From contig CP076040.1 in assembly GCA_014529675.2 (NCBI GenBank), positions 3,987,894 through 4,051,893 of the forward strand: a stretch of 64,000 nucleotides of DNA. The letters run 5' to 3'. The notes below the pieces were generated by a model. The model had not been told where the DNA came from. It made no database searches and saw nothing but the letters and a program-made list of their open reading frames with translations. The translations under genes were made by a program, and so were the position numbers. Below are positions 1-33,371 of the stretch, in pieces. How positions within the stretch are numbered: position 1 is the first letter of the stretch; every line of letters begins with the position of its first letter. This DNA is from Opitutia bacterium ISCC 52. GTDB lineage: Bacteria; Verrucomicrobiota; Verrucomicrobiia; Opitutales; UBA2995.

Positions 1-299
1 TGCCCCCAGGTTCTTAGATGAGTAAGCAGGGTTATTCGACCAGCAGGCTCACTGACCCCATTTTCACTGAGAAAAGCCTCCATATTCTCACGCGGTGATG
101 TTCGGCCTTGGCTAAAGTGATCTGAGTCACGGTAGGTGTAGATGTTGAAACGATTACGGCTCATCAACCAGAACTTAGCAGGGAGAGAATCCAACTCATC
201 CAGATCCAGCATAAACATGAATATACGGTAGCGAAAGCTATGCTTCTTCGGCCGTTTCCTCGAATGACTGATTCTACAATTATACAGACAAGACTTCAT
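1..299 (-). CDS. DUF1365 family protein (partial, runs off the left edge)
   Basis: The first 99 or so codons of a minus-strand gene are visible; the rest lies outside the window. The translation starts MKSCLYNCRISHSRKRPKK and continues through an aromatic FRYRIFMFMLDLDELDSL stretch, which is the N-terminal signature of DUF1365 (COG3496). It starts 20 bp inside the end of the upstream flavoprotein gene, so the two are translationally coupled. In many bacteria DUF1365 sits beside a COG2907 flavoprotein and a cyclopropane-fatty-acid-synthase-like enzyme, in loci linked to light or oxidative stress and to modification of unsaturated lipids. The biochemical role of DUF1365 itself is not settled. 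The family call rests on the motif and on the neighbour. Confidence 0.85.
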   Translation of the reverse strand, partial: MKSCLYNCRISHSRKRPKKHSFRYRIFMFMLDLDELDSLPAKFWLMSRNRFNIYTYRDSDHFSQGRTSPRENMEAFLSENGVSEPAGRITLLTHLRTWG

Positions 300-1566
300 G
301 TTTCTTATCCCTCATTTTGATAGACCTAACAGCACCAATAGCCGAGGTCAGCGCATCCTCGTGGAAGCCGTTTTCGAAATAACTACCCGCAAAGAGCACA
401 TTCTCTTCCAGGTTTAACTTATAAAGCTCATTTTGCGCCCGGACAGCGGCTACATTAAAAATCGGATGGGTATAGTCATCCTCCCAATGCACCTTAGATG
501 CATCCAAATCCCCTTCATAATCTACACTCACGAAATAATTCTGATTCTCGGAAACATGCTGCAGACTATTCATCCAATAATGCGTAGATGAATGGCGTAT
601 ACCACCGGATTCAGGCGAGGTCCTGAAATTCCATGAGGCCCATGCAGATTTGCTTTTCGGCATGACCGTATCATCGCTGTGAAGCACCACATGGTTTTTG
701 TTATAAACAAAGTTAGAAAGTAAACGGTTCTGCAACTCCGAAGGACCTTCCAGCATTTGAAGAGCCTGGTCCGCATGCGTTGCGATGATCACAAAATCAT
801 ACCCTTCTTCACCACCGTGCTCATCCCTTACCAATACAGTCTCGTCGGAAGCAGATGCTACACTGACAGCCGACCTATTAGTGTGCACACAATCGGGAAG
901 CGCATCCAAAATCTTTTTCTTATATTCATTACTACCACCAACAACGGTTCGCCATTCCAACTGAATCCCAATTCCCAGAAGCTGGTGATTGTCTAAAAAT
1001 CGAAGAAGAGAGAGTGCCGGATAATCCAGCATTTTACCGGGAGGCGTTGACCAGATAGCCGCAGTCATCGGCAGCAGATAGTCTTCAGCCAACGCTTCGT
1101 CGAGTGAATACAAGTCAAGAAACTCGCCCAAAGTGACTCGGATGTCCGCAGATATACTAAGAAAGTCTTTAGCAGAACTGAAGAACTTTTTGATCTGCTT
1201 GAGCAAGCTCCAATGAGCTGGGTCAAAGAGCCGTCTGGATTGGGCGAAGTAGGTCTTAAACCCAGTGCATGCATACTCAAGACCTCTGGATAAATTCTGA
1301 ACGCCAAAGGACATGGACGTTTCCATCGTATCTACCCCAAGCTCACTGAATAGCTTTACCAGATTAGGATAGGTATGCTCATTGTAGACCATGAACCCGG
1401 TATCAACCGGGACTCGAGAGGAGCTCTCATTAACATAAACCGTGTTCGTATGACCACCAGCGTAGGTGTTTTTCTCATACACCGTAAGATCGTACTGGTC
1501 TTTTAAGTACCAAGCACTCCCCATACCGGCTATACCGGATCCAATAATGGCGATCCGTTTTTTCAT
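280..1566 (-). CDS. FAD/NAD(P)-binding amine-oxidase-like protein (COG2907)
   Basis: A 428-residue flavoprotein. The N-terminus has a Rossmann dinucleotide-binding motif (GSGIAG, residues 9-14), followed by an acidic end of strand 2 (YEKN) and the GGHTNT segment typical of COG2907, a branch of the flavin-containing amine oxidase/phytoene-desaturase superfamily. There is no signal peptide, so it is probably cytoplasmic. It lies between a MerR regulator (3 bp gap) and DUF1365 (20 bp overlap), which suggests a three-gene or longer minus-strand operon. In related loci these enzymes are thought to act on fatty acyl chains or isoprenoids; the substrate cannot be read from the sequence. Length and motifs look intact. 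Confidence 0.9.
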   Translation of the reverse strand: MKKRIAIIGSGIAGMGSAWYLKDQYDLTVYEKNTYAGGHTNTVYVNESSSRVPVDTGFMVYNEHTYPNLVKLFSELGVDTMETSMSFGVQNLSRGLEYACTGFKTYFAQSRRLFDPAHWSLLKQIKKFFSSAKDFLSISADIRVTLGEFLDLYSLDEALAEDYLLPMTAAIWSTPPGKMLDYPALSLLRFLDNHQLLGIGIQLEWRTVVGGSNEYKKKILDALPDCVHTNRSAVSVASASDETVLVRDEHGGEEGYDFVIIATHADQALQMLEGPSELQNRLLSNFVYNKNHVVLHSDDTVMPKSKSAWASWNFRTSPESGGIRHSSTHYWMNSLQHVSENQNYFVSVDYEGDLDASKVHWEDDYTHPIFNVAAVRAQNELYKLNLEENVLFAGSYFENGFHEDALTSAIGAVRSIKMRDKKHEVLSV

Positions 1567-1569
1567 CCG

Positions 1570-2550
1570 CTAGAGCCCTCTTTCTTTCGGAGGCAATGGC
1601 ATTCCTTCCGCTTCACAAAGATACATGAGCGCTTCCTCTACGCGCCGTCGCGCCATCGAGACCTCGTAACCGAGATGTCTGTGCACTTCCGAATCCGCTG
1701 GAGTGTCTACCTCACAGCCATGACAATAGTCCTCGAACGCTAATAAGCTAGATACCAGCGCAGCCATGTGATTTGGACACTCACACTTCAGCTTTGGCGT
1801 GGCGTTGGCAAGGGAGATCAATTGATTTTGGGTGAAGAGTCTCTCAGCGTCCTTCTGGTGCTCTGGATTTGTCATCTCAATATCCTTAGGCACTCTTTTT
1901 TGACCCGCCGCCTTGAAAAGATATAACTCGAGCTGCTCATTAGGAACTGGCAGGCGGATAAGGAAAAATCCTTCGTCACCGAGTCTCCGCAGCTGCTCGC
2001 GGGAAAGAAAATCATAAAACAAAACAAAAGGCACATCGGGCCATCTTCCTGTCACCATTCCGACAATTCGATTCAGGCCTTCAATAGAAGGAGGCGCCTC
2101 CATAGCAATCAGATCAGGACGGTTCGAGTCACTAATATCTTCTAGGCTATTGAGATCTATTAGCTGTCTATTAATACGAGTTGACATCCGGCTAAGGCGT
2201 TCATAAGACGTATCCTCAAATACGTTAACCTGGAGGATCTTTGACGGATTAAACGTGTCACCTGAAGACACGGGACTATCAAAATCTGTCATGCGAACCC
2301 GCAGCTCTTGGACGCTCAACGTGGCTATGGCGCTGATAGAATCTCCGGCGGATGTAAGCTTGGCGAATAGAATCAGTCGCTCAAGTTGCTGTTTATTATA
2401 TTGGCGCCTACCAGTCGTAGAACGGTGTGCCGCCTGGATAAATCCACGCCTTTCCCATGTACGAATGGTATGGGGTGATATACCAGAAATCTTGGCAACA
2501 GCACCTACTTCGTAATAAACGCTGTCTATATTTGATGTATTAGAAGTCAT
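1570..2550 (-). CDS. MerR-family transcriptional regulator
   Basis: A 326-residue regulator. Residues about 12-80 form the MerR winged helix-turn-helix (VGAVAKISGISPHTIRTWER, then a wing with GRRQY). The C-terminal half is not the usual short dimerisation helix. It contains a cysteine/histidine-rich stretch (CECPNHMAALV, then CHGC), also seen in large MerR proteins. The middle part could be a flavodoxin-like fold, but I do not see the DxHxxG signature of the B12-binding light sensors (CarH/LitR) that control comparable COG2907-DUF1365 loci. It is the first gene of its operon, which suggests autoregulation from the AT-rich region upstream. The inducing signal is unknown; metal binding by the Cys cluster is possible. 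Confidence 0.85.
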   Translation of the reverse strand: MTSNTSNIDSVYYEVGAVAKISGISPHTIRTWERRGFIQAAHRSTTGRRQYNKQQLERLILFAKLTSAGDSISAIATLSVQELRVRMTDFDSPVSSGDTFNPSKILQVNVFEDTSYERLSRMSTRINRQLIDLNSLEDISDSNRPDLIAMEAPPSIEGLNRIVGMVTGRWPDVPFVLFYDFLSREQLRRLGDEGFFLIRLPVPNEQLELYLFKAAGQKRVPKDIEMTNPEHQKDAERLFTQNQLISLANATPKLKCECPNHMAALVSSLLAFEDYCHGCEVDTPADSEVHRHLGYEVSMARRRVEEALMYLCEAEGMPLPPKERGL

Positions 2551-2954
2551 AATTTTTGTATCTCTCCCAATTGATACCTCATTCGAAGTGATTTAGAACT
2601 AATTTAACGCACGTTATACTACATTTTGTTGTTCATATATTGTTCTAATATATCCATAACTATATAATAAATACTTCAATGACATATCAAAACTATGACA
2701 AAAGCTAGGTAAATTTCTATATAAGCCTATCCAAGCTATAAAATCGAAGGCCGCTCGAAGAAACCCGGAATCACTCAAAATGATTCCCAGGTTACCCTAT
2801 TAAGTACGAATTGACTAAAAAGCAGGCCTAAGCGATTCCCATAAAAATGCGCCTACGCGCAGAAATGGGGGAAATGTTCCAGTTCAAGTAAAACCCTGTA
2901 TGAAAGGCGAAGGTGGCTTATCGCCTTTCTTAAATCTGCTGGAATTAGAGTCGT
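2551..2954. other. Intergenic, about 400 bp; promoter region of the MerR operon
   Basis: No convincing coding sequence. The part next to the MerR gene (2560-2700) is strongly AT-rich and presumably holds the minus-strand promoter, but I cannot fix a -10/-35 pair. A short inverted repeat lies at 2902-2929. Confidence 0.5.
2902..2929. terminator. Hairpin, possible terminator
   Basis: GAAAGGCGA at 2902-2910 is exactly complementary to TCGCCTTTC at 2921-2929 with a 10-nt loop. It lies just downstream of the minus-strand 58-residue gene. The flank is only weakly T-rich on either strand, so a terminator role is tentative. Confidence 0.35.
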
Positions 2955-3131
2955 TTATTCGTGAGCCGCGTTTTCTTCCTCACGAAGCGTATTCAGGATA
3001 TCATCTATAACCACATCATCCTCCAATCGATGTTGAGGGAAAGGAGTGGTCTTTTTTTCCTCAGGGCGTCGGATTTTTATCTTAACCGCATTGGTCTTTT
3101 TACTGCCGTCATCATTTAGTTTATGGATCAT
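2955..3131 (-). CDS. Small charged hypothetical protein (58 aa)
   Basis: A 58-codon reading frame from ATG (3129-3131) to TAA (2955-2957). It is preceded by GAGGAAG six or seven bases upstream, a good ribosome binding site. The protein is Lys/Arg-rich at the N-terminus (KIKIRRPEEKK) and acidic at the C-terminus (LEDDVVIDDILNTLREEE), with no membrane segment or signal peptide. The split charge and the ribosome binding site suggest a real small protein, but I recognise no family. It is isolated between two promoter-like regions. Confidence 0.5.
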   Translation of the reverse strand: MIHKLNDDGSKKTNAVKIKIRRPEEKKTTPFPQHRLEDDVVIDDILNTLREEENAAHE

Positions 3132-3494
3132 AAATGCTTCCTCTTGAGCTTGGTATGATCGGAAGACGCGTTTTGTAAAATTTTAATACCCCATAAGTTA
3201 CTTAATTATAAGCAGTTATAGATTTCATTAAGATCCTTAAAGGTTGCTACTAGTGCAACAAATAGACAGGCCAAAAACCGCATTCCCTCAGCTAATAGCT
3301 CCTTCAAACTTTCCCGGAAAACAGGGTGCGTGTGCGAAGGCCTTCTTCTAAATCTTAGGCAATAACTGGAAATATCAAACAAGGGCCATACCCCAGTCGG
3401 GCAAATAGATTATAAAATTAACTAATCTATTCCGTACCATAATAGGCTCTTATGCTTTCCATATCGGCGTGAGCAATTGGCAATTCCGACCATA
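3132..3494. other. Intergenic, about 360 bp, nothing clear
   Basis: AT-rich sequence between the small protein and the end of the truncated permease. No reading frame, RNA signature or strong terminator is visible apart from a short imperfect hairpin near 3244-3262. It may be residue of the missing second half of the permease, but I could not recognise coding remains. Confidence 0.4.
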
Positions 3495-5018
3495 CTAAGT
3501 AAACCGGTCAGTATAACGAAACATTGTTAGTGAACCGTCGCAAATTTTTTTATCTCTAGCAGGTGGAACCGCCCTTGGATGGACCGGATGGAGATCTGCA
3601 TCCACTGGGTCAGCTCCTAAGGCAAGGAACAAGGTGATGTACATGGAACGACTATCAATCAGCCACTCGCTGGCCCACGGGATTTCATCAAAGCGCAAAT
3701 AGTAGAGACTGACCCAATATGCACCCTTCAGAATAGCCAAGCTTCCCAGCCCGCCCAGAAGGAAGTAGATGAAAATCTCCACATAGATCTGACGAGAGAG
3801 ACGCAACACCGATGCACCCATGGCCTTACGCATCGCAAGCTCCTGCAAACGCGAGTACCCTTTCACCAGAATCATACCCCCGACATTCAAACAGCCAATA
3901 ACCAAGACCACAAAAGCCACCCACTGAATGGATTTAAAGGCCATCTCGATCTGCCCCATATCCTGTAAGATCGCGCGGTTTATGACCACAGAGCTAAAGA
4001 CCGCACCCGTGCGTTCCTGATCATCCCGATCCTCAGGATGAACCTCCATGAAAGCCTCAAACACAGCCCTCAGGTTTTGGTTCACCTGCTCGATGGTTAT
4101 ACCCGGCTTCAGTTTTCCGATGGCATTGTGCGAATGATTGTTCCGTTGATTGGGCTTTACTTCATAGGGCTTAAACAGACGTGGGATAAATCCATCCGCC
4201 GGAGTAATCCCCAGGAAAAAGCTACGAGAAACAACGCCTATGATTTCATAGGATTGATTATCAAAAAGCAGACTCTGACCCAGCAGATTGGCATCCTCGC
4301 CCCCCAGCTCATTCCATAGAGTCTCATTTAAGACAATCACACGACCACCTGTTTTTTCTGCCTCTTCATCGGTAAAAAACCGACCCGCAATTGGACGTGC
4401 ACCCGTCGCTTTCCAAATACCGGAAGTGATGGCATCGGTTGATATCCGCCTCACTACGCCACCTAGATCCAGGTCGAACTGGTGCTGATCATCAAAGAAT
4501 CCTATATCGGAAAAAGAGGTCGCGTGTTCCTCTATAAATTTCCAATGCGGAATCGAAATATTTCCAACGCTGTCACCAGACAATTTAGTCTCCGACTTTC
4601 CAACCATAACGATACGTTCGTCGTCTACATAGTCGTAGGGCGTTGAAACCAGCTTAACGACAAAGTTGTAGGCCGTAGTGTTTGAGCCCATACAGATGGC
4701 CAACGTCACAACGATAATCGCGGCATGCAACTTATGCTTGCCAATTTGCCTGCTGGCATAGCGCATATCCTGTAACAAATCATCAAGTATGCGCACGCCC
4801 CAACTCGCCTGGCAGTCTTCCTTCAAGGACTCGACGTTGCCAAATTTCTTCAGCGCAGCCTTTCGAGCCTCCTCACGAGACATCCCCTCTTCTACCATCT
4901 CATCGTTCATGAACTCAAGATGCTGCTCCATCTCAGCATCAAATTCATCCTGCATGGTGTCCCGACGAAACAGGGCCAGGAACCAGTTCTTAATCTCTCT
5001 GAATGATCGAAAGCTCAT
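3495..5018 (-). CDS. ADOP-type ABC permease, half-length (probably truncated)
   Basis: 507 residues. Residues about 20-70 are the prefix domain of orphan permeases (QDEFDAEMEQHLEFM, EEARKAALKKFGN), followed by one transmembrane helix (about 82-105), a long MacB-like periplasmic domain, and two further helices near 373-395 and 420-442. Family members have two such permease modules and run to roughly 800 residues or more; this one stops after the first. Its last 30 residues, after FLALG, are proline/arginine-rich and do not look like a fourth helix. A +1 frame gives a different short tail (starting LTQWMQISIRSI), so a frameshift near 3610 is likely. It lies downstream of a PadR gene, the usual partner. 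Probably non-functional or a half-transporter. Confidence 0.65.
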   Translation of the reverse strand: MSFRSFREIKNWFLALFRRDTMQDEFDAEMEQHLEFMNDEMVEEGMSREEARKAALKKFGNVESLKEDCQASWGVRILDDLLQDMRYASRQIGKHKLHAAIIVVTLAICMGSNTTAYNFVVKLVSTPYDYVDDERIVMVGKSETKLSGDSVGNISIPHWKFIEEHATSFSDIGFFDDQHQFDLDLGGVVRRISTDAITSGIWKATGARPIAGRFFTDEEAEKTGGRVIVLNETLWNELGGEDANLLGQSLLFDNQSYEIIGVVSRSFFLGITPADGFIPRLFKPYEVKPNQRNNHSHNAIGKLKPGITIEQVNQNLRAVFEAFMEVHPEDRDDQERTGAVFSSVVINRAILQDMGQIEMAFKSIQWVAFVVLVIGCLNVGGMILVKGYSRLQELAMRKAMGASVLRLSRQIYVEIFIYFLLGGLGSLAILKGAYWVSLYYLRFDEIPWASEWLIDSRSMYITLFLALGADPVDADLHPVHPRAVPPARDKKICDGSLTMFRYTDRFT

Positions 5019-5033
5019 TTACACTTTTCTAGT

Positions 5034-5152
5034 TGTAGGAGCGGCTTGTTATTCTTCGCTCCGCTTGTTGAGGTGTCGTCTCTGCGCTCCTCGGTAATGC
5101 CGCGATCCCTTTGTGACTCTCTATGCAATCGCGGCATACAGCCGCTCCTACA
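5034..5152. repeat. Nested palindromic element (REP/MITE-like) between padR-like gene and permease
   Basis: Outer arms TGTAGGAGCGGCT (5034-5046) and AGCCGCTCCTACA (5140-5152) are exact reverse complements over 13 bp. Inside them TGCCGCGAT (5098-5106) pairs exactly with ATCGCGGCA (5128-5136). The whole 119-bp unit folds as two stacked hairpins and is more GC-rich than its flanks. It separates the regulator from the permease by 180 bp, whereas such pairs are normally close together. No transposase is present, so it is a non-autonomous or REP-type element. Confidence 0.7.
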
Positions 5153-5198
5153 GTTTTCAAAATACAATTCTTTGTATTTCATCTGCACAGGCCTCTTG

Positions 5199-5534
5199 TT
5201 AGGCTTTTTCGAGAACCAGGTTAACCGCCATAGATACATTCATCCAATGAGCCTTCTCTTCCTCCAACTGCTTCTCACCATCCTTGGTCAGCGCATACAT
5301 CTTGATTGGCTTCTTCGTCTCACCCGTCTGCCAGTCTGATTGAATGAAGGACTTCTTCTCCAGCCGATGGAGGGCCGGATAAAGCGACCCTTGCTGCACG
5401 GTTAACACATCGTGGCTAATCTGCTGAATACGGCGAGCGATGCCGTACCCATGAATCGGGCCGGCCGAAATTACTCGTAAAATCAATAGGTCCAAAGTCC
5501 CCAACAATACGTCTTTTTTTCCTTCTCTTGGCAT
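5199..5534 (-). CDS. PadR-family transcriptional regulator
   Basis: A 111-residue PadR protein. The winged helix covers about residues 8-85 (LLGTLDLLILRVIS, HGYGIARRIQQIS, QQGSLYPALHRLEKK), followed by a C-terminal dimerisation helix. It is the usual length of the short PadR subfamily that accompanies orphan ADOP-type permeases, and the permease lies downstream on the same strand. The start ATG (5532-5534) is three bases from a near-perfect palindrome (5537-5570), the probable operator, which leaves no room for a normal ribosome binding site. The transcript may therefore be leaderless or nearly so. Ligand unknown. Confidence 0.92.
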   Translation of the reverse strand: MPREGKKDVLLGTLDLLILRVISAGPIHGYGIARRIQQISHDVLTVQQGSLYPALHRLEKKSFIQSDWQTGETKKPIKMYALTKDGEKQLEEEKAHWMNVSMAVNLVLEKA

Positions 5535-5536
5535 AG

Positions 5537-5570
5537 TAGTAAGCTATCTATGTATTTAGACAGCTTACTA
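5537..5570. promoter_or_regulatory. 34-bp palindrome, candidate PadR operator
   Basis: TAGTAAGCT at 5537-5545 and AGCTTACTA at 5562-5570 are exact reverse complements, and the inner bases TCTA/TAGA extend the symmetry. It sits between the divergent PadR and ThuA genes and abuts the PadR start codon. PadR proteins bind such dyads as dimers and usually repress their own promoter, so autoregulation is the natural reading. Confidence 0.65.
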
Positions 5571-5646
5571 AGTCAACTACATACGTTATCCACTCTACAT
5601 AAATTTCGATTTGCCAGCTATTGTGGAGATCCACCATCCTCAAAGA

Positions 5647-6594
5647 ATGCTAAGAATCGTTACTTTTTTCACCCTACTCTTCTCATTTACCACAAGCCTT
5701 ATGGCGGCCGACAAAATCAAGGTCATGCATCTGAATGGGCAATCCAACAAGTATCACTCCTGGAAAGGCTTGGGTGATGCTATTAATCAGCATTTGGAGA
5801 GCGCCGGCATCTTTGATGTAGATGTCGTAACATCCCCTGCTGGCGGAGAAAACCTTAGCAAGTTTTCACCCAAGTTCAGTGACTACGATGTAATCGTCTT
5901 AAACTATGATGGAGACGAATGGTCCGAGAAGACCAAGAAAGCTTTTGTGAAATACGTCCGTAACGGCGGCGGCGTGGTTACGGTTCACGGAGCCAATAAC
6001 TCTTTTGCTTACTGGCCTGAGTATAATGAAATTATCGGCTTGGGTGGCTGGGGAGGACCGACGCTCTACGATCCCCCACTCTATCAAGGCGAAGCGGATA
6101 AACAAAAAAGCCGCAATGAAGATTGGGGCCCTCGCGTTTACTGGGATGGTTGTGGAGCCGTTCACGACGATCAACCCGGTAGCACCAAGCACCCGCCCAA
6201 GCACGACTTTATCATTACCAACCGGACTCCTGATCACCCCATCATGAGAGGACTCCCAGAAATGTGGCTGCAATCCCACGATGAGGTTTACTCCGACCTG
6301 CGCGGCCCTGGCAAAAACCTCACCATCCTGGCTACTGCCTACGCCGACCAGAAACTTAAGAATGCATCACCCTACAACGAACCGATGCTCTTCACCGTAT
6401 CCTACGGCAAGGGTCGCGTTTTCCAAACGACCCTCGGACATGTGGGTGCCAAGGATGATGCCACCGTGCCATCCGTCAGGAATGTCGGTTTCATAACGAC
6501 CCTTCAACGCGGCGTCGAATGGGCCGCAACTGGAGACGTAAAGCAGGCTATGCCTGAAGATTTCCCGACCGCTTACGAGGCGACTGTGCGCTAG
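5647..6594 (+). CDS. ThuA-like domain protein, secreted
   Basis: 315 residues from ATG 5647. This start gives a clear signal peptide (MLRIVTFFTLLFSFTTSLMA); a longer frame from TTG 5611 would bury it. The mature part is a ThuA-like (class I glutamine amidotransferase-like) domain, with GGGVVTVHGANN and a C-terminal GKGRVFQTTLGH segment that match the family. ThuA proteins are abundant in Verrucomicrobiota and Planctomycetota next to sugar dehydrogenases and lectin-fold proteins. Their reaction is poorly defined, with a link to trehalose and other disaccharide use. The neighbour on the opposite strand is a Gfo/Idh/MocA oxidoreductase, a common association; the two genes converge with a 14-bp gap. 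Confidence 0.88.
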   Translation: MLRIVTFFTLLFSFTTSLMAADKIKVMHLNGQSNKYHSWKGLGDAINQHLESAGIFDVDVVTSPAGGENLSKFSPKFSDYDVIVLNYDGDEWSEKTKKAFVKYVRNGGGVVTVHGANNSFAYWPEYNEIIGLGGWGGPTLYDPPLYQGEADKQKSRNEDWGPRVYWDGCGAVHDDQPGSTKHPPKHDFIITNRTPDHPIMRGLPEMWLQSHDEVYSDLRGPGKNLTILATAYADQKLKNASPYNEPMLFTVSYGKGRVFQTTLGHVGAKDDATVPSVRNVGFITTLQRGVEWAATGDVKQAMPEDFPTAYEATVR

Positions 6595-6608
6595 CTACTG
6601 GTTCTTAC

Positions 6609-7667
6609 TCAGCTTGTGGACATACCCGAAGCCTGCAATAAGGCCTCCTGGGTAATCAGGTCATGTTGATAGGTCCAATCGAGGGACTTCTCACCACGAA
6701 TCACTTTGGCCAGGTCTTCAAACTCGCCATCGTAGCGACCGTCTTTTCCAAGGGCGACTTGCTGCTCTCCCTTTTTGTAACGACCTCTCGGTTCATCGAG
6801 GTAGAGGGTTAGATTACCGGACTCCAGCTGTTGAATTTCAATAACACCTTTATCACCGGCGATCTGAAACCGACGACGGGGAAAACCAAAGGGATCCATG
6901 TGATTGATGCGAACCGTGGCGATAGTGTTCCCGAACGTAAGAACTGCCAACTGATTATCGGCCACCCCATCCGGTTGAGTTGCGCGGTTGTGAGCAGTAA
7001 CCGACTGAGGCTTCCCAAGCATATGAACAATCGAATCAATCATGTGGCCGCCCAGCTCGAACATGCCGCCGCCGGAAAATCGTCCGATGTCTCGGCGTAT
7101 TCCCTCATTGGCCAGCTTGCCCATCATACAATCGATCTCCATGATGTTGCCGAGCCAACCATCACGAACCGCCTTATACATAAATTGAAAGGCGCGGTTA
7201 TAGCGTAGCATGTAGCCCATCTGAATTATGAGTCCGGACACCTTGGCTTTCATAAGAAGGTGTTTAAACTCCGGCAATGAATCTCCACCCGGTTTATCGA
7301 GGTGAATATTTACCCCTGTATCGATGCAGCGATGAGCCGTGGCAACAAGGTCAGGTACATCCGTCTCAACGGCTACCACTTGTAAACCCGGGAAGTTTAG
7401 CAATTGCTCCTCAGTCATCCAATTGACGCCAAGGTAAGTCTTGTCGTTCGCCAGTTCACGCCTTCGAGCCACATCCGGTTCAACCACACCTACCAATTCG
7501 TAGGTTTCGGGCTGGTTGCGAATGGCTTTCATCTTACCCGATGCATGACCATGCTGAGTTCCAATTTGGCCGATCTTAATCTCTGAATTTGGATCCGCAG
7601 AATAACCTGAGATAGAAGATGCAAGTAAGGCTGCACTTGAGGAAACTATAAAGGAGCGTCGATTCAT
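6609..7667 (-). CDS. Gfo/Idh/MocA-family oxidoreductase (exported type)
   Basis: 352 residues. The N-terminus (NRRSFIVSSSAALLASS) is a twin-arginine-like signal, so the enzyme may be folded with NAD(P) and exported by Tat, as is common for this family in PVC bacteria. The Rossmann domain follows (IKIGQIGTQHGHASGK), with a DKPGG motif near residue 128 corresponding to the catalytic EKP lysine, and then the C-terminal alpha/beta domain (GGGMFELGGHMIDSIVH). Such enzymes oxidise or reduce sugar hydroxyls. The substrate is unknown; the ThuA and sulfatase context suggests a glycan-derived sugar. Confidence 0.9.
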   Translation of the reverse strand: MNRRSFIVSSSAALLASSISGYSADPNSEIKIGQIGTQHGHASGKMKAIRNQPETYELVGVVEPDVARRRELANDKTYLGVNWMTEEQLLNFPGLQVVAVETDVPDLVATAHRCIDTGVNIHLDKPGGDSLPEFKHLLMKAKVSGLIIQMGYMLRYNRAFQFMYKAVRDGWLGNIMEIDCMMGKLANEGIRRDIGRFSGGGMFELGGHMIDSIVHMLGKPQSVTAHNRATQPDGVADNQLAVLTFGNTIATVRINHMDPFGFPRRRFQIAGDKGVIEIQQLESGNLTLYLDEPRGRYKKGEQQVALGKDGRYDGEFEDLAKVIRGEKSLDWTYQHDLITQEALLQASGMSTS

Positions 7668-30665: not shown

Positions 30666-31023
<358 letters not shown>

Positions 31024-31175: not shown

Positions 31176-31418
31176 TCAGTTAAAATCCAAAAAGGTCTGT
31201 TTCAAGTGGTGCTCTTTGGGAGGCTCGGGTTGGTAGAAGGGCTCGATGTGCACTGGCTTTACTTCGACGGGTTTTGCGGGGATCCATTTTCTAGGTCCCT
31301 GGCGTTTCTTGGCCCTTCTCCGTTTTGCACTGTGTTGGCCCACTTCTCTACAGGCCTCGGAGTAAGTCAGACCCTTTTCTGACATCAACCGGTATACCTT
31401 ATGTAGGAAAGGACCCAT
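31176..31418 (-). CDS. Small basic hypothetical protein (80 aa)
   Basis: 80 codons, ATG 31418 to TAA 31176. The centre is strongly basic (AKRRRAKKRQGPRKW) and the first third has a helical segment LMSEKGLTYSEACREVG, reminiscent of short DNA- or RNA-binding helices. The C-terminal half is proline-rich. There is no good ribosome binding site before ATG 31418, and an internal ATG at 31385 is an alternative. It lies upstream of tmRNA on the same strand. Not assigned to a family. Confidence 0.55.
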   Translation of the reverse strand: MGPFLHKVYRLMSEKGLTYSEACREVGQHSAKRRRAKKRQGPRKWIPAKPVEVKPVHIEPFYQPEPPKEHHLKQTFLDFN

Positions 31419-31651: not shown

Positions 31652-32347
31652 ATGAAAACCAAACATTTCCTTCGTTGTATATTCGTTCTTGTACTAACCC
31701 CATTCTGGGCCCAAGGTGCTGCCTTCCTCAAATTCGACGGTGTCGATGGTGAATCCAAGGATAAAGACCACAAAGGCTGGATCGACATCGAATCCATATC
31801 CTAGCGAGATGACGGTCATAAAGATTGGATTGTCATCGAATCGTTTAGCCAAGTGGTTCACCGCGACATCGCTACCCGAAACGTAAGGGCAAAACGGGAT
31901 ACCACTCCAGGTCAGGGCACGGGGAAGAGGGATGCCGCCTCGGGACAAGCAACTGGCAGGCGTGATGCAGCCTCGGGCCTTGCCACTGGTAAACGTGACG
32001 CTGCCTCAGGACGACCAACGGGTCGCAGGGATGCCGCTTCTGGCATGGCAACGGGCAAACGCCAACACAAACCCGTCAGGGTGACCAAGGGAATTGACAA
32101 AGCGACTCCCCTACTCGCAAAGGCTCTCAGCAGTGGCAATTCAATGGGCAATGTGACCATCCAACGGACACATGAAGGAAAGTCCGAAACAATCACACTC
32201 ATAAACGCCACCGTGGCAGAGGTGCAGAAAAGTGGAAATACCGAACATGTCACTTTTAATTATCAGCAGCTTCGCCAGGTGCCCAATTCCAGTGTCCGAG
32301 GTTGGAACCCAAAAGACAAAAGAGCCATCCAAGGTACCGCTAAATAA
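31652..32347 (+). pseudogene. Exported Hcp-like protein with 33-bp repeats and an internal TAG
   Basis: Frame from ATG 31652: signal peptide (about residues 1-23), then AAFLKFDGVDGESKDKDHKG and WIDIES, the opening of the Hcp/COG3157 fold. A TAG at 31802-31804 interrupts codon 51. After it a second, diverged copy of the same 16-codon block follows (GHKDWIVIESFSQ), in which CAA (Gln) stands where the first copy has TAG. Then come five 11-residue repeats and an Hcp-like C-terminal half (KPVRVTKGIDKATPLLAKAL, VTIQRTHEG, ITLINATVAEV). Re-initiation at GTG 31853 would give 164 residues without signal peptide. Either a pseudogene or an odd recoded gene. Confidence 0.7.
31892..32056 (+). repeat. Five tandem 33-bp repeats encoding (K/R)RDAASGxxTG
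   Basis: Units start at 31892, 31925, 31958, 31991 and 32024. They encode KRDTTPGQGTG, KRDAASGQATG, RRDAASGLATG, KRDAASGRPTG and RRDAASGMATG. An even more diverged copy may precede (HRDIATRNVRA). DNA identity between units is lower than protein identity, with many changes at third codon positions, so the array has been under protein-level selection. Confidence 0.9.
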
Positions 32348-32386: not shown

Positions 32387-32424
32387 AAAAAAGCCGAAGC
32401 GGAATCACCTGCTTCGGCTTTTTT
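32387..32424. terminator. Strong bidirectional Rho-independent terminator
   Basis: AAAAAAGCCGAAGC (32387-32400) and GCTTCGGCTTTTTT (32411-32424) are exact reverse complements around a 10-nt loop, with an A-run on one side and T-run on the other. It lies between the convergent Hcp-like gene and the thioredoxin gene and serves both. Confidence 0.92.
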
Positions 32425-32444: not shown

Positions 32445-33371
32445 TCAAAGATTCACACCCAGGGAGGCCAAAGTCTTCGTCAATTCGGGATCCATTGGAT
32501 GTCCGTTGTATAAAACCTGTCCATCCGGAGTAAGGAGGATCATACGAGGAATTGAGTTAATAGCCAATGCTCTGGAAAAGGGACTCGACTCAGGTTCGAT
32601 AAGCCAGGGCATATCCATACCATGTTTCTCCTGCACTTCACGCGCATGGCGTAATTGGTCTGAGCGATCGGTATTCATACCAGCTACAAAGACGCCTTGA
32701 GCTGGCAGCGTATCCGCCTTCTTTTTCAACTCGGGCATGAGCTGGATACAAGGACCACACCAACTAGCCCAAAAATCTAATAAAATAGCCTTCTGACCTT
32801 GGGAAGCCTTTGCCAGGGTAGTCATAGAACCATCCACAGACAGAATTTCCAAATCCATAGGAATCCGGAGATTTTTCATGGCCTCTTTCTGAGCAGTTTT
32901 CTCGTGATGGTCCTGAACCAAACGAGCCATACCGAACATATTACTGACCTCGGGACTTTTCCAAAAGCCTTCTTTGGTATGACGTTCGAAGCCTTCCATA
33001 TCGCCAGCTTCATTGGCTCTAAGTGCCTTCAAATTTTCGATCAACCCATGGACTTGATTGCGTGTGGAGAAGAAGCCTCCTTGGCCAACAACAAACTCAT
33101 CGGCACTCGCCTCCATTTCAGGAATGAGAGCTAAGACAGCCTGCAAATCGCTGCTCCCCAATAGGTTTAACACTTTACTTTCCAGCAACACAGAAGCTTT
33201 TACACCTGCAGCTTCCGCCGAATTGTATGCCGCATCAAAATCTGCCTCTTGATCGACGGCTGCTGCGCGAAGTGCCTCAAGTGGACTCGCTACAGTCTCG
33301 GTCTGTTCATCCTGGGCGGTAAGAAAAATGGGGCTTACCAAGATAGCAATTAATACTAAAATATTCTTCAT
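32445..33371 (-). CDS. TlpA-like thioredoxin-fold protein (exported)
   Basis: 308 residues: signal peptide (MKNILVLIAILVSPIFLTAQ), an N-terminal helical domain of about 150 residues (LEALRAAAVDQEADFDAAYNSA and onwards), then a thioredoxin domain with WASWCGPC and the cis-proline in SIPRMILL. AhpC/TSA-TlpA proteins reduce or exchange disulfides in the periplasm, often in cytochrome maturation or oxidative stress. The helical N-terminal extension is common in PVC bacteria. It ends in front of a shared terminator. Confidence 0.9.
   Translation of the reverse strand: MKNILVLIAILVSPIFLTAQDEQTETVASPLEALRAAAVDQEADFDAAYNSAEAAGVKASVLLESKVLNLLGSSDLQAVLALIPEMEASADEFVVGQGGFFSTRNQVHGLIENLKALRANEAGDMEGFERHTKEGFWKSPEVSNMFGMARLVQDHHEKTAQKEAMKNLRIPMDLEILSVDGSMTTLAKASQGQKAILLDFWASWCGPCIQLMPELKKKADTLPAQGVFVAGMNTDRSDQLRHAREVQEKHGMDMPWLIEPESSPFSRALAINSIPRMILLTPDGQVLYNGHPMDPELTKTLASLGVNL

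What the first reader, a model, noticed from the sequence alone, without database searches (positions are those of the whole stretch)
31652..32347. Exported Hcp-like protein with five 33-bp repeats, an internal duplication and a TAG stop
The gene has a signal peptide and an Hcp-type sequence, unlike the cytosolic T6SS Hcp tube protein. Its N-terminal block KDKDHKGWIDIES is duplicated as GHKDWIVIES, and the TAG sits at the position of the Gln of the second copy. The RDAASGxxTG repeats vary at the DNA level while conserving the peptide, so selection acted on the protein until recently. No other T6SS gene is present. This could be a secreted, repeat-expanded Hcp relative with a separate function.
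Basis: partly seen in the sequence, partly recalled or inferred. Interest (0 to 1): 0.65.

Follow-up and report, generated by a model that had tools for sequence, protein, structure and literature searches.

The report
Broken exported Hcp-like gene, repeat-lengthened loop
A gene for an exported protein built like the ring subunit of a bacterial injection machine, with one loop lengthened by tandem repeats, is interrupted by a stop codon in this genome, although intact copies exist in sister species that show it was long kept by selection.

Summary
Window 31652-32347 (+) encodes an Hcp (TssD)-fold protein with an N-terminal signal sequence, a duplicated HKGW strand, five 33-bp repeats and an in-frame TAG at 31802-31804 (codon 51). 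Pfam T6SS_HCP scores 83.9 bits (cut-off 23.5); the model of an intact orthologue matches solved Hcp structures (Z about 16). The repeats lie in Hcp's loop L2,3, which stacks rings in T6SS; the last repeat is the ordinary loop, the others are added copies. Three T6SS/hub markers (TssK, TssC, GPD/VgrG) are absent from the genome. Same-genus orthologues sit at the same locus: two intact with about 3 and 6 repeats, one with a different stop (TGA), one a remnant. So duplication and repeats are ancestral and the stop is not. dN/dS is about 0.1 on both sides of the TAG: recent inactivation (or a base error), not recoding (TAG ends 18 of 45 long window ORFs). Hcp-like genes, mostly exported, occur in 26 of 223 genomes of the order, so this is a variant of a known kind. 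Unexplained: the repeat peptide also occurs in exported proteins without an Hcp domain in several phyla, including six tandem copies in an RHS protein.

The parts
31652..31717 (+). signal sequence MKTKHFLRCIFVLVLTPFWAQG
   Evidence: inspection and hydropathy; the same feature in three same-genus orthologues and the paralogue
31718..31801 (+). first part of the Hcp core (strands 1-2), ending in the first HKGW block (31766-31801)
   Evidence: PF05638 profile positions 1-26; strands in the model of the G001 orthologue
31802..31804 (+). in-frame TAG, codon 51
   Evidence: orthologues have sense codons here
31814..31849 (+). second HKGW block (GHKDWIVIESFS)
   Evidence: alignment A1; conserved in G001, G002 and G005
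31853..31882 (+). VVHRDIATRN word (VVHRDVAARN in G005)
   Evidence: sequence; similar word VIHRDLAARN in L029
31895..32059 (+). five 33-bp repeats, expansion of Hcp loop L2,3
   Evidence: model loop between strands 2 and 3 with low pLDDT
32060..32344 (+). KRQHKP plus the rest of the Hcp barrel
   Evidence: PF05638 positions 33-126; fold match
32294..32344 (+). C-terminal VRGWNPKDKRAIQGTAK, similar to baseplate hub (GPD/VgrG) proteins
32345..32347 (+). TAA stop
32387..32424 (.). intrinsic terminator hairpin between this gene and the TlpA-like gene
   Evidence: -24.2 kcal/mol, z -6.2
32445..33371 (-). TlpA-like thioredoxin, conserved neighbour (context)
   Evidence: Pfam; synteny
31176..31418 (-). 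ORF of 80 aa, neighbour in G002 and G005, interrupted by a stop in G005 (context)
30666..31023 (-). tmRNA gene (context)

Best explanation
This is a recently inactivated copy of a genus-specific, exported Hcp-fold protein in a verrucomicrobial (Opitutales-type) genome without the T6SS markers tested. In the intact orthologues the protein is probably sent across the inner membrane by Sec and folds as an Hcp barrel, likely a ring. The L2,3 loop, which in T6SS Hcp contacts the next ring, has been lengthened by tandem duplication of its own 11-residue segment and probably projects as a flexible, basic, repeat-bearing arm for self-association or ligand contact outside the cytoplasm. In this genome a nonsense codon after 50 residues removes nearly all of the mature protein. 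Shown: Hcp homology, signal sequence by inspection, loop position of the repeats, ancestral duplication, selection on both sides of the stop, absence of three T6SS/hub markers. Inferred: ring formation, location, function of the arm, recency of the loss.
For: Pfam T6SS_HCP 83.9 bits. AlphaFold model of the intact G001 orthologue: Hcp core pLDDT about 90; Foldseek best hit Hcp 7fcf E 4.7e-7; VIA Z about 16 to several Hcps; repeats between strand 2 (48-51) and strand 3 (148-153). Loop L2,3 mediates ring stacking in B. pseudomallei Hcp1 (PMC4650826). Only the last repeat aligns with the single loop copy of T6SS Hcps (RDPQSGQPTGQRVHKPVVITK of Hcp3; matches start at residues 122-133). Orthologues at the same locus: G005 77%, G001 59%, G002 55%, G003 remnant. 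dN/dS 0.10 overall, 0.12 for the mature part before the TAG, 0.083 after it. TAG ends 18 of 45 long window ORFs. TssK, TssC and GPD/VgrG absent.
Against: No reads are available, so the TAG could be a consensus error; strong constraint right up to the present fits an error as well as recent loss. Ring formation and export are untested. The full model has mean pLDDT 64 and pTM 0.50; only the core is reliable. Only three T6SS/hub components were searched.
Confidence: 0.72

Rival explanations
1. The TAG is a base-calling or assembly error and the gene is an ordinary intact member of the genus family.
For: Everything downstream is conserved in frame with dN/dS 0.083 and no indel against G005 over 231 codons.
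Against: Another same-genus orthologue carries its own, different stop and has lost its normal stop, and a third is a remnant, so loss at this locus is a recurrent trend. The first repeat has also degenerated in G000.
Confidence: 0.2
2. Programmed readthrough or stop-codon recoding: a short exported peptide plus a full-length form.
For: Frame and selection continue after the TAG.
Against: No stop at this position in any orthologue; TAG is an ordinary terminator here (18 of 45 long ORFs).
Confidence: 0.03
3. The intact protein is not a ring protein. Hcp parts were reused as peptide modules of an exported binding or display protein, and the repeats are the functional part.
For: The repeat peptide occurs in exported proteins with no PF05638 hit (L034, L035, L036) and in FG-GAP and RHS proteins; the C-terminus resembles a baseplate-hub motif.
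Against: The full Hcp core is predicted with good confidence in this family.
Confidence: 0.2

Closest known systems
T6SS tube protein Hcp/TssD (PF05638; e.g. P. aeruginosa Hcp3, 3he1)
   Same: barrel fold, N-terminal GWIDIES strand, RDxxSGxxTGxRxHKPxxxTKxxDKA loop-strand-helix
   Different: signal sequence, no T6SS markers in the genome, L2,3 loop expanded to about 3-6 repeats, hub-like C-terminal word, interrupted here
Exported orphan Hcp-like proteins of the same class (e.g. L024 Pelagicoccus, L020, L084, L013)
   Same: signal sequence, Hcp core, in L020, L024 and L084 also the RDAASGxxTGKRQHKP-type loop
   Different: no tandem 11-residue array and no HKGW duplication; several end in DYNSSRSNK tails
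Phage and contractile-injection tail tube proteins (gp19, Pvc1)
   Same: related fold (VIA Z about 9-10)
   Different: not exported, part of a tail operon

Membership tests
Hcp/TssD (PF05638) | profile match above gathering cut-off | tested here: met
   83.9 bits against 23.5
Hcp/TssD (PF05638) | Hcp barrel fold | tested here: met
   intact orthologue: VIA Z about 16, Foldseek E 4.7e-7
T6SS tube protein TssD (TIGR03344) | score above NCBIfam cut-off | tested here: not met
   56.5 bits against 58.9, just below
T6SS tube protein TssD | T6SS sheath, baseplate and spike genes in the genome | tested here: not met
   TssK, TssC and Phage_GPD/VgrG absent; other components not searched
T6SS tube protein TssD | cytosolic, no signal peptide | tested here: not met
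   N-terminal signal-like sequence in all intact orthologues; hydropathy only, SignalP not available
T6SS tube protein TssD | hexameric rings that stack through loop L2,3 | not testable with these tools
   needs purified protein
Functional gene in this genome | uninterrupted reading frame | tested here: not met
   TAG at codon 51

The most novel reading that the evidence does not exclude
The peptide RDAASGxxTGKRQHKP, the loop of Hcp, is a transferable and tandemly amplifiable peptide module of exported proteins. It was amplified independently in an exported Hcp-like protein (33-bp unit, this genus) and in an RHS protein (48-bp unit, L085), and is spread through unrelated exported proteins of several phyla together with other fixed words from contractile-injection proteins. 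That would suggest a common binding partner outside the cytoplasm.
Probability: 0.3. Interest if true: 0.65.

Novelty: new variant of a known kind. Interest (0 to 1): 0.42.

Why it matters
Hcp is known as a T6SS tube and effector carrier. A lineage that exports Hcp-fold proteins without the T6SS markers tested, and lengthens precisely the ring-stacking loop by tandem duplication, suggests that the fold has been put to another use. It offers a simple test of what that loop does. The occurrence of the same loop peptide in other exported proteins, including RHS, was not found in the open papers searched and could point to a shared ligand.

Tried and rejected
Recoding of TAG: rejected. A DNA-level mobile repeat such as the NCBIfam 'KRQAASG repeat spurious translation' model: scored below cut-off (17.5-20.6 against 30), and third-base identity at identical residues of the word across loci is 0.29, near random, so conservation is at the peptide level. 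Phage origin: no near relative in phages or viral contigs, only distant Hcp-like matches. The 24-aa C-terminal word gave no match in phages and one weak one in plasmids. Literature on exported or repeat-expanded Hcp: nothing found under the terms used. Tandem pattern in a phylum sample: only this genome of 387, but the pattern is strict (it missed the RHS array of L085) and other genus members were not in the sample. The terminator scan missed the terminator, which folding shows.

Full report
What is there. The frame 31652-32347 (+) encodes a signal sequence, the first Hcp strands, a second copy of the HKGW strand block, a VVHRDIATRN word, five 33-bp repeats and the rest of an Hcp barrel, ending at TAA 32345-32347. 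It is cut by TAG at 31802-31804, codon 51. Pfam T6SS_HCP matches at 83.9 bits (cut-off 23.5) when the stop is read as X. The piece before the TAG and the ORF after it each match alone. TIGR03344 is just missed (56.5 against 58.9 bits).

Relatives. Of the 53 genomes searched (this one included), five others match: four of the same genus and one more distant. In G005 (77%) the codon that is TAG here is a sense codon, but a TGA lies in repeat 4 and the normal stop is lost. In G001 (59%) and G002 (55%) the frame is intact, with about 6 and 3 repeats. In G003 only the C-terminal part remains. G004, a fragmented assembly, has no detected copy. The gene lies next to the same TlpA-like and dehydrogenase genes in G001, G002, G003 and G005, so these are orthologues by position. 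The HKGW duplication is present in all that can be read. Duplication and repeats are therefore ancestral to these orthologues; each stop is private to its genome.

Selection. Between G000 and G005 dN/dS is 0.10 overall, 0.12 in the mature part before the TAG and 0.083 after it. Differences by codon position are 36, 23 and 115. Flanking genes have dS about 0.6. In the repeats pS is 0.80 against 0.48 in the C-terminal part, which fits turnover of repeat units (inference). Among polarised changes 21 fall on G000 and 11 on G005, a difference too small to be conclusive. The stop must be recent, or an error. TAG is an ordinary stop here, ending 18 of 45 long ORFs in the window, so recoding is not supported.

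Structure. AlphaFold on the intact G001 orthologue gives an Hcp core with block pLDDT mostly 83-92 and a disordered repeat stretch. Foldseek and VIA-align place it with solved Hcps (E 4.7e-7; Z about 16) and, lower, with phage and injection-system tube proteins. The repeats sit between strands 2 and 3, the loop L2,3. In B. pseudomallei Hcp1 this loop contacts the next ring, and mutants in it failed to stack (PMC4650826); E. coli Hcps of different function differ in it (PMC5874247). T6SS Hcps align only with the last repeat, so the array is an expansion of the native loop.

Context. TssK, TssC and GPD/VgrG are absent from the genome. Hcp-like proteins are common in the order: 26 of 223 genomes have a PF05638 match, and most of the ORFs read carry a signal-like N-terminus, often in tandem pairs. 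This genome has a second, intact one without repeats. A terminator hairpin lies at 32387-32424 and a tmRNA gene upstream.

The repeat peptide elsewhere. A scan of genome contigs found RDAASGMATGKRQHKP-like words in Bacteroidota, Alpha- and Gammaproteobacteria, Acidobacteria, Ignavibacteriota, Hydrogenedentota and UBP7 as well as Verrucomicrobiota. Across 21 words the mean amino-acid identity is 0.86 and third-base identity at identical residues 0.29. The search selected for the peptide, so the first number is biased upward. Some carriers have an Hcp domain. Others do not: L034, L035 and L036 have no PF05638 match, and L032 is an FG-GAP protein. L085 is an RHS protein with six tandem SPRDAASGLATGRRQH units that differ synonymously. 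Other words are shared too. The window protein's C-terminus resembles baseplate hub proteins (15 of 24 identical; GPD domain). This is not explained. Two readings are open: conserved pieces of much-diverged tube-fold relatives, or a transferable peptide module.

Verdict. How the intact protein works (exported ring with a repeat-bearing arm) is inferred from fold and loop position, not shown. The most novel reading, a transferable loop peptide, is open.

Noticed in passing
L085 (G488), RHS protein: Six tandem 16-residue copies of SPRDAASGLATGRRQH with synonymous differences, inside an RHS-repeat protein: apparently a second, independent amplification of the Hcp loop peptide.
   Followed up: partly
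L013, L015, L020, L024, L084: C-terminal DYNSSRSNK / NHNTTRSN tails shared by exported Hcp-like proteins, also found inside proteins of L019 and L030.
   Followed up: partly
window 31853-31882; L029; L013, L014, L015, L031: Words resembling tyrosine-kinase motifs (HRDxAxRN; RWMAPES) in exported Hcp-like and related proteins; possibly coincidence.
   Followed up: no
L019, UBP7 contig, 1-6669: A 2223-residue open frame that mixes Hcp, gp19 tail-tube and weak PAAR-like matches with several RDAASG words.
   Followed up: partly
L112 (G003 C53), L077 (G001 C119): Other Hcp-like loci of the genus also contain in-frame stops, suggesting frequent birth and loss of these genes.
   Followed up: partly
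window 30666-31023 (-): tmRNA gene with tag ANDEALPMAA, close upstream of the Hcp-like gene.
   Followed up: no
window 31176-31418 (-): Basic 80-aa ORF with no Pfam match, conserved (68-69%) next to the Hcp-like gene in G002 and G005; a stop interrupts it in G005.
   Followed up: partly
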